A DNA stretch of 64,000 bases from Sulfurimonas sp. (GTDB lineage: Bacteria; Campylobacterota; Campylobacteria; Campylobacterales; Sulfurimonadaceae), in assembly GCA_027063645.1 (NCBI GenBank), contig JAMORK010000039.1, positions 1 through 64,000 of the forward strand, given 5' to 3'. Of the stretch, positions 8,831 through 15,532 are shown in pieces. Under the pieces are notes generated by a model. That model searched no databases and was not told the origin of the DNA. It saw only the letters and a program-made list of their open reading frames with translations. The position numbers and the translations under genes were made by a program. The stretch's first letter is position 1, and every line of letters starts with the position of its first letter.

Positions 8831-9310
8831 TTAACCTTCACATCCACCAAGTGCAACATCTAAAGTTTGTTTAGCAGCATAAAGCTTACCGTCTTCACCC
8901 TCAACTACTACAGTAATAGTACCTGGTTTACCCATTTTAATTTTAATTGAGTAATCATTTACAGAGTATTTAGTTGCAGAGATAACACATACAGCTGACT
9001 CTGGGTTAGCATCTTGGAATACAGCAATAGTTTTTGCAGCTATTTTTGTTCCAAATTCTACTGGAATTGCACCACCAGAAGAGGCAACAGCTTTCTTACC
9101 ACTGTCAAAACTTTCACCAGCAGCTTTCAGTTGTACACCCTCTTCGATAAGTGTAGTAGAACCATATAATGCTTTAATAGCATCATCAACAGTGTGAGCT
9201 GTCCATACAGCTGGCTTTGATTTTCTAAAATCTTCTGCTTTTACACTTGCAGGTACAACAGCTAAAGCTAATGCACCTAAAGTTACGTTTAAAAATTGTC
9301 TTCTTTCCAT
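8831..9310 (-). CDS. soxY: Thiosulfate oxidation carrier protein SoxY
   Basis: Tat-like RRQFL signal; C-terminal LGGCEG carrying the conserved cysteine. Confidence 0.9.
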   Translation of the reverse strand: MERRQFLNVTLGALALAVVPASVKAEDFRKSKPAVWTAHTVDDAIKALYGSTTLIEEGVQLKAAGESFDSGKKAVASSGGAIPVEFGTKIAAKTIAVFQDANPESAVCVISATKYSVNDYSIKIKMGKPGTITVVVEGEDGKLYAAKQTLDVALGGCEG

Positions 9311-9327
9311 AATGTTTCCTTTTTGTT

Positions 9328-10482
9328 TTATTTACCGTGAACTATGTAGTCAACTACTAGTTTGAAGTTAGCATCAGATAAGTCTGCACCACCTTTAGCA
9401 GGCATACCACCCTCTGTACCATCTATCGCTTTTTTGTATACTGTTTCCATACCTTCAGCAAGGAATGGTTTCCACTCATCACTCCCAGGAGCTAAGTAAG
9501 AAGAGTGACACATTGCACATGCATTATTATACACCTCTTTTACATCTACTTTTACTTCTGCTTTGTTATCCTCTTTTGGAAGATCTCTTACATCAGACAT
9601 TGGTGGTAAAAAGTTAGAGATACCAGCACCTTGAATACGTGTTACTACAACTGATTTTTCTTGACAGTCTTTCATACAACGTTCACTTGCTTTTACTTTT
9701 ATAGCACCAAAGTTTGTTGGGTTAGCATAAAAAGTACGTACATCATCTAAAGCATTTGGCCCATCAATGTTAGGGATAAAACCATTTTCATTTGGCATTT
9801 TGATTTTAAGCATTTTTTCACGGTTAAGTACAAACTCGTCATCAATCTCTTCACCCTCATACTCAATCTCATTAATGTTAAGCATATATGCAGTAAGTGC
9901 ATATGTCTCATCATCACTTAATGTTTTTGATTTTGGATGAGGCATACCATCTTTGATATACCAGAACATTGTACTAATTTGTGGCCAGTAAGAACCAAAT
10001 ACACGAGTTGGTCCATCAGCTTCAGGATCATGCCATCTATTGTTTGTTAAAGTCTTTTGTAACTCATAACCGTTTCCTTTTGAAAGTGCTGGATAACCAC
10101 CTCCACCAGAACCGAAGTCACCATGACACATAACACACTTAGCTTCGTAAATCTCTTCACCCTCTTCAACAGAACCACTACCTTCTGGTAAACCAGTACC
10201 ATCAGGCATTACATCTTTATCCCAAGCTTTTAATTCATTCGCAGTTGGAACACGACCATTATAAATCTTTTTTGCATCTAGTGCAACTTGTGGATTTACA
10301 TAGTATGGACCTGTTTTATCATTTTCTACAGGATAAATCACACCACCATCAATAGTTGGCTTTCCATTTACTGTGTTAGTACCTTTTGGCTCTGCACTAT
10401 TTTGCATACAACCAACTGTAAGTACTGCAATCGCTGCTGCAGCTGAAGCTGTTGCGATTAATTTAGTATTTAATTTAAGCAT
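9328..10482 (-). CDS. soxD: SoxD-type di-heme cytochrome c, possible lipoprotein
   Basis: Two CxxCH motifs (CVMCH, CAMCH), lipobox-like LTVGC, directly downstream of soxC. Confidence 0.85.
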   Translation of the reverse strand: MLKLNTKLIATASAAAAIAVLTVGCMQNSAEPKGTNTVNGKPTIDGGVIYPVENDKTGPYYVNPQVALDAKKIYNGRVPTANELKAWDKDVMPDGTGLPEGSGSVEEGEEIYEAKCVMCHGDFGSGGGGYPALSKGNGYELQKTLTNNRWHDPEADGPTRVFGSYWPQISTMFWYIKDGMPHPKSKTLSDDETYALTAYMLNINEIEYEGEEIDDEFVLNREKMLKIKMPNENGFIPNIDGPNALDDVRTFYANPTNFGAIKVKASERCMKDCQEKSVVVTRIQGAGISNFLPPMSDVRDLPKEDNKAEVKVDVKEVYNNACAMCHSSYLAPGSDEWKPFLAEGMETVYKKAIDGTEGGMPAKGGADLSDANFKLVVDYIVHGK

Positions 10483-11794
10483 TCTTTATCCCTCCTGGTG
10501 TTCTCATCTGTACATGGTTAACTTCACCTGTAGCTGTTACTTCCCAAGTCTCAACCGCATTTCTGTGGTAAACTGATTCAACACCCATAATACTTACTTC
10601 TTGATCGATTGTAGGTTGAATATAACCTGCATCGTCCATAGCACGTGAAGTAAGAAGAAGTCTCTCCCCTTTTTTATATGTGTGCATATAGCTCCAACGT
10701 GTCCATGATTTAGGAAGTACTAAACCTTTAAGATTTGCTTTCACATAGTTGTTTCCACCATCAAATGATAAATCAACTCCAGTAATAGTTCCCATACCAG
10801 ACCATGCAAGACCTTCTATCTCAACGATATCACCATCTTTAAGATTAGTCCATGGAATCTCTGGAGATGGAGATGTTACAGTTGAGTTTACCTCATTTGC
10901 ATAGAAATGTTGGATAGCTTTACCACTTGGTTGTAGAGCAGTATACTTAGAAGTTTCTTCTTTACAGTACCAAGGCTCAGTTGAGAATTCAAGACGTTTT
11001 AGCCATTTAACACAAAGGTTACCTTCCCAACCTGGAAGAAGTAATCTTACTGGGTATCCTTGTTCTGGACGAAGTGCTTCACCATTTTGTCCCCAAACGA
11101 TCATAGCATCATCAAGAACTTTATCAACAGGAACAGTTCTTCCCATCTCTGAGTTGTCTGAACCTTCAGCAAGCATCCATTGTGCTTCTGGCTTAAGACC
11201 AAGATCTTCAAGAATAGTTTTCACATAAACACCAGTCCACTCAGCACAAGACATAAAACCTTTTGCAAATTGAACAGAGTTAAATTGTGGTCCACGCCAC
11301 TCTTGTCCACCATTGGCAGGACACTCAATAAAGTGAGTACGAGTTACACTTGGGTAACGTTTAAGTTGCTCTAATGTAAGAACGATTGGCTTCTCAACCA
11401 AACCGTGAATCATTAAACGAAATTCATTTGGATCTACATGTGCCACACCACCGTGTGAACGAGAGAAAAATAAACCATTTGGTGTAATGATTCCCATAGA
11501 TTCTTGGATTGGAGTAACAGCAATAGATGCACGGAAGTTTCCAGAAGCTAGTAGCTTAGTATTTCTTCTTGTAACATTATGCTCATATTTTGAAGGTACA
11601 CCGTAACGATTTTTTGTTACAGGATCCCCCCAAACTTGTCCCCATGGTACATGGTGCATGATAGCAGGATCGTCTGCCATCGCGTCAGATGACATTACAG
11701 ATGTTCCAGCAAGTGCAGCAACTGAAGCAGCAGCTGATTTTCTGAAAAATTCTCTTCTGTCGATCGTCTTATCGTGTTGAGATTTATTATCCAC
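10475..11794 (-). CDS. soxC: Sulfane dehydrogenase subunit SoxC (sulfite oxidase-type Mo enzyme)
   Basis: Tat RREFF signal; THFIECPANGGQEWRG and sulfite oxidase dimerization domain. Confidence 0.93.
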   Translation of the reverse strand: MDNKSQHDKTIDRREFFRKSAAASVAALAGTSVMSSDAMADDPAIMHHVPWGQVWGDPVTKNRYGVPSKYEHNVTRRNTKLLASGNFRASIAVTPIQESMGIITPNGLFFSRSHGGVAHVDPNEFRLMIHGLVEKPIVLTLEQLKRYPSVTRTHFIECPANGGQEWRGPQFNSVQFAKGFMSCAEWTGVYVKTILEDLGLKPEAQWMLAEGSDNSEMGRTVPVDKVLDDAMIVWGQNGEALRPEQGYPVRLLLPGWEGNLCVKWLKRLEFSTEPWYCKEETSKYTALQPSGKAIQHFYANEVNSTVTSPSPEIPWTNLKDGDIVEIEGLAWSGMGTITGVDLSFDGGNNYVKANLKGLVLPKSWTRWSYMHTYKKGERLLLTSRAMDDAGYIQPTIDQEVSIMGVESVYHRNAVETWEVTATGEVNHVQMRTPGGIKNA

Positions 11795-12012
11795 ATTTTC
11801 TCCTTTTTAGTTTGTTATTACTTTAAGTTTTATTTAAAATTTATATAACTCTGATTATCTATAAATAGACAAAGTTTTTTACTTTCACATTATGCCATTT
11901 TATACTTAATAAAAATATAGGGCGCATATCATTATACAAAAAAATGAGATAAAAATGTGATATTATTGATATTTCGAGCTTTGTGAGTTACTTATCGAAA
12001 CATAATTAAAAT

Positions 12013-12285
12013 TTATTCTTTTTCAACTATGCCTAATATCACAAAAGTGTCATTACTCTCATCTACATAAAAGGGGATAACAAAGCCACCATGGACTACA
12101 TCACGGATATTGTCATTGTCATAATATATAGATTTCTTATATTTATTATACTTTGTTGGAATATTTATAATGATAGTATCTAGATAAGATTTAAAGTTTT
12201 TTGCAACTTTATAATCTGTAACAATCATCTCATCTAAGATATCTTTTAGCTGTGTTTCATAGAGCTCTGATGCTACAATATTCAT
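12013..12285 (-). CDS. RelE/ParE-like toxin
   Basis: 90 aa with ParE-like layout (YETQLKDILDEM...INIPTKYNKYKKSIYY...TFVILGIVEK); preceded by an adjoining small ORF. Confidence 0.55.
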   Translation of the reverse strand: MNIVASELYETQLKDILDEMIVTDYKVAKNFKSYLDTIIINIPTKYNKYKKSIYYDNDNIRDVVHGGFVIPFYVDESNDTFVILGIVEKE

Positions 12286-12286
12286 C

Positions 12287-12424
12287 CTATTTTTCTCTCT
12301 TTTTTAGCCACTCATTTATCTCTTTCATACAGAGACTATATGCCTTGAAAGATTCTTTTTTATTGGCGTATTTCTCCAATTCTTTTGCAAAAAGGGTTTT
12401 CAATTGTTCTTGAGAAGGATTCAC
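12287..12424 (-). CDS. 45-aa small ORF, candidate antitoxin (not in the ORF track)
   Basis: GTG start overlapping the upstream stop (TAGTG); translation VNPSQEQLKTLFAKELEKYANKKESFKAYSLCMKEINEWLKKREK; stop 1 nt before the toxin ATG. Confidence 0.55.
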   Translation of the reverse strand: MNPSQEQLKTLFAKELEKYANKKESFKAYSLCMKEINEWLKKREK

Positions 12425-13032
12425 TACTCCTCCTCTTCCTCTGATGTTTCAGATTGCTCAGATGGTTTATTTCCATAGATCGTATCTACATCATCACTTA
12501 TCATCTGAATATCATCCATAGCATCTTCATAAGCTTCAAGTTTAGCATCACATTCATCTTCATCATCTGCTGCTAAGGCTGCTTCTTTTAAAGAGTCTTC
12601 AATCATATATGCTTTAAATGGCATACCATAGTTATAAACTAACTCTCCACCATCTTTTCCTTGTAAAAAAACTGTTGCTGTACCACCTAAGAGTAAAAGA
12701 ACTGCCAAAGCCTCTAAGGCAAAGATTTTCATTCTACATCCAACAATTTTTAAAAATGCGATAAGACCAAACGCGATGGCAAGGTAGAGTCCAAGTGTTT
12801 TATGCTCAATGAGTTCATGTTGCCCTGCTTCACTAAGATAATCATATATCTGAGGACCAGCCTGCGAACCTGTATACCAAACACCAACCATTGCGATTGC
12901 TGCAACTAATGTAAGACGTGAAGATATCTTAGACATCCCCTCACTCTTTGTAAACATATAAACTAGACCAAAAACTGAAGCAACAAGGGGTAAAACCATT
13001 GCAAAGTGTGCTGTAGCTGGATGTAACATCAT
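12424..13032 (-). CDS. DUF2231-like integral membrane protein
   Basis: HPATAHFAMVLPLVASVFGLVY, four hydrophobic segments, acidic C-terminal tail. Confidence 0.65.
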   Translation of the reverse strand: MMLHPATAHFAMVLPLVASVFGLVYMFTKSEGMSKISSRLTLVAAIAMVGVWYTGSQAGPQIYDYLSEAGQHELIEHKTLGLYLAIAFGLIAFLKIVGCRMKIFALEALAVLLLLGGTATVFLQGKDGGELVYNYGMPFKAYMIEDSLKEAALAADDEDECDAKLEAYEDAMDDIQMISDDVDTIYGNKPSEQSETSEEEEE

Positions 13033-13119
13033 AATATTCTCCTATTTGTTATAATTATGTATTATAATAAAATAATAGCAACTGATGTTTATCACATAAT
13101 TATAATATATAACCTTAAG

Positions 13120-14172
13120 TTACTTTTTATCAATAGCATCTTTTGCAGACTTAATTGCTGAACCAAGTGCTACCTTTGCTACACCCCATGCTTCTATACC
13201 CATACGTTTTGCCTCTTGTGCTTTTGGAGACTTAAAGGCTGTATCTGCACGCTTCACTGCATTTTTGGCAAAAGAGGAAAATCTCTCTTTCATCACCTCG
13301 GCAGTTTCTTTAGAGATATGTACCAACTCTTCTAAATCATAATGCATATCTTTATTGATAGCTAAAAGGATTCTGTTTATCACCGGAGAGCTTTGGGATG
13401 CCTGTGTAGTTATCACTTGTGAGAAGAGAATATCTGTCTGATTAAGATCTTCAATAATTGTGTCATAATCTTCTATCAAAATATGTTTTGCTTCCACAGG
13501 TGTATATGCAAGTCTCTTTTTAAATCGATCTATCGATTTTATAAGTCCACTTCTCATACCTCGAAGTGTAGCACTGAGAATCTCTTGGGCTCTATTTGGT
13601 GTAGCTTCTGAGAGATCAATTGCAGCGATCAATATAGTTGAAAGAATTTTTCTTACACGTATAGTATTGAGTGAGCCCTCTTTGATAGCTTCAAAAGTGA
13701 TCTCTTTAATCACTTCAATTGTGGTTTCGCTAATATCACCATCACTATCTTTTTCTAATGCAGTGATAAGTGCAGATTCAACCATCTCACTTAAGATGTC
13801 ATAAAGATCAATAGACTGAAGTTTTACCTGATGCAGTCTTGCTAAGGCAGTCTCATTCGATTTAACTCTCTCTTCTAAGACATCAAAAACATCGTATTTT
13901 GTCTCTTGAAGTTGTGTATATTTTTTCTCTAAACTTCTCTCAATTAACTCTTTTTGTGCAAGAAGTGTTTCTACATCCTCTTGCAAAGATGAAGTCTCTA
14001 AATTTAAAATAGTGTTTACCAAACTTTTCATCTCTGCTAAATTCAATTTATCTACATCAAATTCATTATGCTCTATAAGATTTTCTATTGCAGAAGAAAC
14101 TCTTTTTTCTACACTTTTAAATCTTCTATTATAGGACTTTTCAAGCTCTTCATTTAGTTTTTCTACATTCAT
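13120..14172 (-). CDS. Conserved hypothetical, predominantly helical/coiled-coil (DUF6781-like)
   Basis: Uninterrupted frame rich in helical heptads. Confidence 0.5.
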   Translation of the reverse strand: MNVEKLNEELEKSYNRRFKSVEKRVSSAIENLIEHNEFDVDKLNLAEMKSLVNTILNLETSSLQEDVETLLAQKELIERSLEKKYTQLQETKYDVFDVLEERVKSNETALARLHQVKLQSIDLYDILSEMVESALITALEKDSDGDISETTIEVIKEITFEAIKEGSLNTIRVRKILSTILIAAIDLSEATPNRAQEILSATLRGMRSGLIKSIDRFKKRLAYTPVEAKHILIEDYDTIIEDLNQTDILFSQVITTQASQSSPVINRILLAINKDMHYDLEELVHISKETAEVMKERFSSFAKNAVKRADTAFKSPKAQEAKRMGIEAWGVAKVALGSAIKSAKDAIDKK

Positions 14173-14185
14173 TCTATACCCCTTT

Positions 14186-14449
14186 TTAAAGTACCATTTT
14201 TATATCTTGATGCTTTTTCAATGCCTCAAATATAAAAGTTCTATCATCTTCATTATGCACAAGCAAATCAAGATTCATACTTACATACTTCCCTGTTTTT
14301 GAGCTGTTAGAGTGAGAAAGCTTATGTTCTCTCTCTTCTATCACATCATGAATCGCTTTTTCTAAAGCCTCTTTCTCACTTGCAATCACCTTATAACACC
14401 AGTTACATGGATATGTAAGTTCCACTTTTTTATCGTCTAAAGTTACCAC
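14186..14449 (-). CDS. DUF493 (YbeD-like) protein
   Basis: [10 protein letters not shown]...[36 protein letters not shown]. Confidence 0.7.
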
Positions 14450-14900
14450 TTTTACCTCCTGATTTAGATTCTAATTGTACATTACGGATTATCATCCCTT
14501 TATCTATCGCTTTTACCATATCGTAAATTGTTAAAAGCCCTACACTTGTTCCTGTTAATGCTTCCATCTCAACTCCAGTTTGTCCTGTAAGTTTTGCAGT
14601 CACTGTTAATTTAAAACCGGGGAGATCTTCTAACTCTTCTATATCACAATTGATTCCACTAAGATTGAGTGGATGACACATGGGGATAAGAGTGCTTGTT
14701 TGTTTTGTTCCCATAATAGCTGCTATAACTGCAGTTTGTAAAACAGGGCCTTTTTTTGTTGTCTCAGATACTATAGCATCATAAGCATCACGGCTCATCT
14801 CTATAGTTCCACTCGCTACAGCAACTCTTGTTGTTTGCTCTTTCTCACTTACATCGACCATTTTTGGTCTTTGATTTTCATCTAGGTGTGTTAAATTCAT
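14430..14900 (-). CDS. moaC: Cyclic pyranopterin monophosphate synthase MoaC
   Basis: [33 protein letters not shown] motifs. Confidence 0.95.
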
Positions 14901-14953
14901 TTGATTCTCTTTTGTAAAGTGTATTTGTTTGACACTATTATAGCAAAGAGGTG

Positions 14954-15532
14954 TTAATGATTTGTTTTGATACGTTTGAGTGCTATTTCATACTCATGGG
15001 GATGGTTAAGATTTAAAAAGGGTTCGCTATCAAAAAAGTCTACATAGTTTGTCTTTACGCTTTTCAGTAAAAAGCCCAATTTATGTTGAGACTCTTTTTG
15101 CATTTGTAAAAATTTCTCTTCTAAAGTCTGATGGTAAACGCCACACATTGGCTGTATCTTACCATCTACTCTTGCTATTGTTGCATCTACACTTGAACTG
15201 TCTTTTTCTAAAAGTGTTTTTATCTCATAACTACTAATAAATGGAGTATCAACACTTATAGCAAAAAACTTTTTACTTTGAAGTTTTTTAAAACTTGCTA
15301 TAAAACCTGCTGTTGGAGCATACTCTTGAGAGTTATCTTCTATAAAATTTGCTTCAAAAGAGAACTTATCTTTGTTTTTAGATGATATATATACAGTGGA
15401 AAATATTTGGGAAAGTCTTGAGTATTGATACTCTGTTAGTGTTGAAAATGTAGAGAAAGGAAGAAGAGATTTATCTCTCTTCATCCTTGAACTTTTGCCA
15501 CCCGCAAAGATGACACAAGGGGTGTTAAACAT
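14954..15532 (-). CDS. mobA: Molybdenum cofactor guanylyltransferase
   Basis: [21 protein letters not shown] nucleotidyltransferase motif. Confidence 0.88.

What the first reader, a model, noticed from the sequence alone, without database searches (positions are those of the whole stretch)
12013..12424. Unlisted two-gene TA-like module: 45-aa ORF plus RelE/ParE-like protein
The small ORF 12287-12424 is absent from the supplied track. It starts with GTG inside TAGTG, sharing a base with the stop of the DUF2231 gene, and ends 1 nt before the toxin ATG. Such tight coupling of a short charged protein with a ParE-like protein is typical of TA modules, but the partner is unusually small with no obvious DNA-binding fold.
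Basis: partly seen in the sequence, partly recalled or inferred. Interest (0 to 1): 0.6.

Follow-up and report, generated by a model that had tools for sequence, protein, structure and literature searches.

The report
Stripped-down antitoxin beside a ParE-like toxin
The 45-residue gene is real and conserved: it is the toxin-binding half of an antitoxin that has lost its front domain, it sits beside a ParE-type toxin gene in a family of sulfur-oxidising bacteria, and relatives carry the same pair with a full-length antitoxin, with this short one, or fused into one protein.

Summary
On the minus strand, a 45-codon ORF (12287-12424, GTG) overlaps the DUF2231 stop by one base and ends one base before a 90-aa ParE-type toxin (12013-12285; Pfam ParE_toxin 24.4 bits, cut-off 23). 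The short ORF is a gene. All 79 testable orthologous toxin loci, nearly all Sulfurimonas, carry a homologous antitoxin segment directly upstream or fused in frame. Close pairs show purifying selection.

Comparison explains the odd size. At the same locus, relatives have a 71-76-aa antitoxin whose second half aligns with the 45-aa ORF (profile E 3e-12; 0/100 column shuffles) and whose first half aligns with that of ordinary, scattered copies of the family, so loss of the first half is the likely direction. One clade has fused a still shorter piece to the toxin in a single ~120-aa protein. A model of one fusion (pLDDT 91) is a ParE fold with the antitoxin helix attached; best PDB matches include ParE and PaaA2-ParE2.

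So this is a type II-like pair whose antitoxin was reduced to its neutralising part, at the end of a housekeeping operon upstream of soxC. Toxicity, binding and the first domain's role are untested. Known kind (cf. PaaA2), new variant, intermediates preserved.

The parts
12287..12424 (-). 45-aa short antitoxin ORF (GTG start), equivalent to the C-terminal toxin-binding half of the 71-76-aa long antitoxins
   Evidence: homology to the long form; purifying selection; conservation
12013..12285 (-). 90-aa ParE-type toxin homologue
   Evidence: Pfam PF05016 24.4 bits v 23; close relatives in 74 genus genomes counting the window's own (E<=1e-20); fold of a 49% identical natural fusion relative matches ParE
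12424..13032 (-). DUF2231 predicted membrane protein; the antitoxin start overlaps its stop by one base
   Evidence: Pfam PF09990 28.6 bits v 26.4; upstream neighbour in 45 of 51 short-form loci
12427..12440 (-). GA-rich codons of the Glu tail of DUF2231 that double as a strong Shine-Dalgarno-like stretch for the GTG start
   Evidence: duplex energy with anti-SD -10.1 v -3.3 kcal/mol for the toxin start; not a general feature of the other loci
13120..14172 (-). DUF6781 protein (350 aa), upstream gene on the same strand
   Evidence: Pfam PF20572; upstream in window and relatives
10475..11794 (-). SoxC-like molybdopterin sulfite dehydrogenase subunit, first gene of the downstream sox cluster
   Evidence: Pfam Oxidored_molyb/Mo-co_dimer; 155-317 nt after the toxin in 49 of 49 testable short-form loci

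Best explanation
The pair is a type II-like toxin-antitoxin module whose antitoxin has been cut down to its toxin-binding half. Ancestral state (inferred): a two-part antitoxin of about 73 residues followed by a ParE-type toxin, as in the ordinary scattered copies of the family. In the Sulfurimonas lineage the front half was lost and the remaining ~45 residues, two predicted helices, were kept under selection. The pair is now the last two cistrons of a housekeeping operon, with start and stop codons touching, so the peptide is made just before and in step with the toxin and can bind it at once (inferred). Because the front half is gone, the pair probably cannot repress its own promoter; its level is set by the upstream operon (inferred; that the front half binds DNA is not shown). 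In one clade a further deletion joined the antitoxin at a Met codon to the toxin's start Met, giving a single self-contained protein (the fused state is seen in the sequences; the deletion is inferred). Shown: homology, coupling, conservation, fusion, ParE fold of the fused relative. Not shown: translation, binding, toxicity.
For: Geometry and Pfam hit. Antitoxin segment at 79/79 testable orthologous loci: 51 short and 9 long two-gene, 19 fused. Short-form profile aligns only with the C-terminal half of the long form (E 3.3e-12, columns 37-76 of 78; 0/100 shuffles) and not with its N-terminal half (67/100 shuffles as good); both halves of the long form align with antitoxins of ordinary copies (0/100). 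Fused N-terminal piece aligns with the short form (E 1.7e-9). Natural fusion modelled at pLDDT 91.3, pTM 0.85, antitoxin helix confident; PDB matches: ParE 6x0a TMt 0.86, PaaA2-ParE2 5czf 0.81. A low-confidence model of a long antitoxin shows two helices in the retained half. Orthologues form one clade apart from ordinary copies (100/100), fused forms one clade (100/99). Toxin, antitoxin, SoxC and DUF2231 distances correlate (rho 0.42-0.54; 0/500 permutations). Close pairs have dN/dS 0.07-0.27. Operon-end position with gaps mostly -8 to +24 nt.
Against: No binding or toxicity datum. Across 78 orthologues, residues invariant or nearly so in ordinary copies are changed: R50 to K (99%) and Y72 to F (95%), with clade-specific near-invariants Q12, Y34, T37, T44, K45, so activity may be weakened or altered. 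The lost half matches no known DNA-binding family and did not model well. The long forms also lie tightly in operons, so loss of the front half and capture by an operon do not coincide strictly.
Confidence: 0.7

Rival explanations
1. Domesticated pair: the toxin has lost its poison and the two proteins (or the fused one) form a non-toxic complex with a cellular role, perhaps linked to the adjacent sox or molybdenum-cofactor genes. (Compatible with the antitoxin origin of the 45-aa ORF; it differs on what the pair does now.)
For: Single-copy, mostly vertically inherited, clade-specific invariant residues and R50K/Y72F relative to ordinary copies; conserved place upstream of soxC; permanent fusion with a shortened antitoxin in one clade.
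Against: No toxin without an antitoxin segment in 79 loci, as expected if free toxin is harmful; several complete genomes do without the pair, so it is not essential; most fused forms have lost sox adjacency.
Confidence: 0.35
2. Three-part system: DUF2231 is the third, regulating or anchoring component, as PaaR2 is for PaaA2-ParE2.
For: DUF2231 directly upstream in 45/51 short forms, 5 of 18 fused forms, and also with a long form in another genus.
Against: The same pair follows aroC or DUF6781 in other genomes without DUF2231 next to it; DUF2231 is a predicted membrane protein, not a DNA-binding regulator.
Confidence: 0.1
3. The 45-aa ORF is an untranslated or chance frame between two genes.
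For: It is absent from the supplied annotation and has a GTG start.
Against: Conserved frame, dN/dS 0.07-0.27 in the closest independent pairs, homology to longer antitoxins, in-frame fusions to the toxin.
Confidence: 0.02

Closest known systems
PaaA2-ParE2 (paaR2-paaA2-parE2, E. coli O157:H7 cryptic prophage)
   Same: [quoted passage not shown] ParE2 is among the best structural matches of the fused relative.
   Different: No dedicated regulator gene is linked here; the partner operon is housekeeping; the antitoxin has no detectable sequence match to PaaA2 or any PDB chain; chromosomal and mostly vertically inherited rather than prophage-borne; long-form and fused relatives survive.
ParDE modules with DNA-binding antitoxins (e.g. 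M. opportunistum 6x0a)
   Same: ParE fold of the second protein (TMt 0.86).
   Different: Antitoxin about half the size, without the N-terminal domain; no match to ParD in Pfam.
Single-gene ParD-ParE and other fused TA proteins (PMC11980606)
   Same: Relatives of the window pair are antitoxin-toxin fusions in one frame.
   Different: Here the fused antitoxin piece is itself only ~30 residues, ending at the junction Met, and unfused long and short two-gene states exist beside it.

Membership tests
ParE toxin family (PF05016) | Pfam profile match above gathering score | tested here: met
   24.4 v 23 bits, residues 6-86; marginal
ParE toxin family (PF05016) | RelE/ParE (BECR) fold | tested here: met
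   Model of a 49% identical fused relative, pLDDT 91.3, PDB matches ParE; the window protein itself was not modelled
ParE toxin family (PF05016) | Toxicity through DNA gyrase | not testable with these tools
   needs expression and gyrase assays
Type II toxin-antitoxin module | Two adjacent co-directional, coupled genes, antitoxin first | tested here: met
   1-nt gap in window; mostly -1/-4 overlaps in relatives
Type II toxin-antitoxin module | Protein antitoxin that binds and neutralises the toxin | not testable with these tools
   Indirect support only: obligate pairing and natural fusions
Type II toxin-antitoxin module | Antitoxin DNA-binding domain giving autoregulation (typical, not universal) | tested here: not met
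   N-terminal half absent from the 45-aa form; whether that half binds DNA in long forms is unknown. Autoregulation is not claimed.
PaaA antitoxins | Sequence relationship to PaaA/PaaA2 | tested here: not met
   Profile of the short form finds no PaaA2 chain in the PDB at E up to 10
PaaR-PaaA-ParE three-component systems | Linked regulator gene | tested here: not met
   Upstream gene is DUF2231, DUF6781 or aroC

The most novel reading that the evidence does not exclude
The family preserves, at one chromosomal locus, the stepwise conversion of a self-regulated toxin-antitoxin module into an unregulated operon-embedded pair with a minimal antitoxin and then into a single-chain self-neutralised protein, and the end products have taken on a cellular role tied to sulfur oxidation.
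Probability: 0.25. Interest if true: 0.75.

Novelty: new variant of a known kind. Interest (0 to 1): 0.55.

Why it matters
Work on PaaA2-ParE2 left open whether antitoxins without DNA-binding domains come from ancestors whose domain decayed (PMC8630535 calls this an interesting evolutionary question). Here the full-length, half-length and fused states lie at orthologous positions in related bacteria, so the question can be tested by direct comparison. It also gives a very small natural antitoxin candidate (mostly 42-49 aa) and a class of short genes that annotation misses.

Tried and rejected
Alignments mixing antitoxin-only rows with toxin or fused rows were misaligned by MAFFT and not used for modelling. 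The long antitoxin of L053 modelled poorly (pLDDT 66.8, pTM 0.29), so the fold of the lost half is unknown and no fold search was run on it. The idea that the antitoxin generally has a stronger ribosome site than the toxin failed: true in the window (-10.1 v -3.3) but in only 19 of 50 overall. Pfam, NCBIfam, PADLOC, PHROGs and PDB searches with the antitoxins gave only weak, unrelated hits. No plasmid record resembles the locus. That the front half was lost more than once is suggested by the tree (at least 4 changes) but a single clade of front-half-less forms is not rejected (p-AU 0.287). No report of this family was found in the papers searched. The promoter scan found 12 sites against 8.2 expected, so it says nothing.

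Full report
OBSERVATION. Reading the minus strand, DUF2231 (12424-13032) ends ...GAGGAAGAGGAGGAG TAG, and the last base of that stop is the first base of a GTG that opens a 45-codon frame (12287-12424). After its TAG there is one base, then the ATG of a 90-codon frame (12013-12285). The latter passes the Pfam ParE_toxin cut-off (24.4 v 23 bits); the 45-aa protein matches nothing above threshold in Pfam or NCBIfam.

THE ORGANISM AND THE FAMILY. The window lies in an incomplete genome (1.14 Mb, 54% complete). Records from the same genus bear the name Sulfurimonas (contig L052 has the length and match position of G033:C10). Among the genus genomes searched (135), 74 (the window's own included) hold one copy each of a close relative of the toxin (E <= 1e-20), and a separate, weaker set (E of about 1e-13 and above) is scattered, often several per genome. 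A profile search of 399 genomes of the order shows the same split: high scores in the window's family and a few members of one other family, then a drop to the scattered type.

EVERY TOXIN HAS AN ANTITOXIN SEGMENT. I fetched the surroundings of the close relatives and read the frame upstream of each of 80 distinct toxin genes. Sixty have a separate upstream ORF that touches or overlaps the toxin start; 51 of these are short and nine are long (71-76 aa from the conserved start). Nineteen have the antitoxin segment fused in frame to the toxin. One (L073) begins at a contig end. No toxin stands alone. In one genome (L028) the toxin is frameshifted while the antitoxin is whole, which may be a sequencing error.

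WHAT THE 45-AA ORF IS. Long antitoxins read M(T/K)TIHLxVEDDYIExFMxxLPxDKVxVIEEDF- followed by a second half ending -F.PY.ESMKEL..WL.... A profile of the short forms aligns with the second half only (columns 37-76 of 78, E 3.3e-12; 0 of 100 column shuffles as good) and not with the first half (67 of 100 shuffles as good). Both halves of the long form align with antitoxins of the scattered copies (0 of 100 each). These E-values are for single comparisons. Because the front half is shared with the outgroup, losing it is the simpler direction. Among 50 short forms W39, L40, Y19 and K27 are 90-98% conserved, and in the closest independent pairs dN/dS is 0.07-0.27.

FUSED FORMS. In one clade (18 sequences, 100/99 support; 19 with L137, 99/95) the antitoxin ends ...F.PYYPGM and runs straight on as the toxin. 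In L137 the junction still reads PYYKSMKQIVSS: the Met of the antitoxin's SM motif is the toxin's start Met. This fits a deletion between the two ATGs (inference). L021 is a separate fusion that kept the front half. The fusion of L057 was modelled from 13 sequences at pLDDT 91.3 and pTM 0.85: a confident N-terminal helix (2-16) followed by a ParE fold. Best PDB matches are ParE of Mesorhizobium opportunistum (6x0a, TM 0.86 by target) and the PaaA2-ParE2 complex (5czf, 0.81). Sequence profiles alone find no such relative in the PDB.

PLACE IN THE GENOME. Of 51 short-form pairs, 45 follow DUF2231, four DUF6781 and two aroC, with gaps mostly between -8 and +24 nt; soxC lies 155-317 nt beyond the toxin in 49 of 49 testable cases. 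Long forms follow aroC in eight cases (in some with one gene between) and DUF2231 in one; in four genomes of another genus of the family the order is long antitoxin-toxin-soxC, once with DUF2231 recognisable upstream. Most fused forms are away from soxC. Eight genomes without the pair have soxC beside other genes and no remnant. Distances between toxins, antitoxins, SoxC and DUF2231 correlate (rho 0.42-0.54, 0 of 500 permutations as high). The pair is thus an old, mostly vertically inherited resident. The window genome also holds a normal RelE-like pair with a 76-aa antitoxin next to another TA-like pair, a useful contrast.

HOW IT MOST LIKELY WORKS. The peptide is made immediately before the toxin from the same message and binds it; with no front domain the pair probably does not control its own promoter, and its amount follows the upstream operon. 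Binding, toxicity and the DNA-binding role of the front half are inferences from type II systems in general and from PaaA2, which also lacks a DNA-binding domain (PMC8630535). A caution: positions invariant or nearly so in scattered copies (R50, Y72) are K and F in the orthologues, and Q12, Y34, T37, T44 and K45 are near-invariant only in them. The toxin may have changed or lost its activity, which is the main rival reading.

KNOWN OR NEW. Antitoxins without DNA-binding domains are known (PaaA2, PMC8630535; tripartite systems, PMC4803016), and fused TA genes are known (19 prokaryotic ParD-ParE fusions in PMC11980606). New here are the antitoxin family itself (no library match), the very small size, the link to housekeeping operons and soxC, and the survival of full, half and fused states at related places. 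The tree does not decide how often the front half was lost.

Noticed in passing
window 8831-15532: Molybdenum-cofactor genes (MoaC at 14430-14900 and a MobA-like ORF at 14954-15532) lie just upstream of the DUF493-DUF6781-DUF2231-pair block, and a molybdenum SoxC with a SoxD-like cytochrome and SoxY just downstream.
   Followed up: partly
L146-L153: In eight Sulfurimonas genomes lacking the pair, most soxC genes are preceded by a methyltransferase-like gene and a divergent gene that looks MOSC-like (by eye), with no remnant of the pair.
   Followed up: partly
L056, L057 (same as L123, L125): Fused forms nested in the fused clade occur in genomes of another family of the order, suggesting horizontal transfer of the fused gene.
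   Followed up: no
L028 (G025): Long-form antitoxin intact while the toxin is frameshifted near codon 50; real inactivation or assembly error.
   Followed up: no
L121 (own genome, contig C23): Ordinary TA cluster: RelE-like toxin with a 76-aa antitoxin, next to a MazF-like toxin with a 77-aa antitoxin and an HTH-like protein.
   Followed up: no
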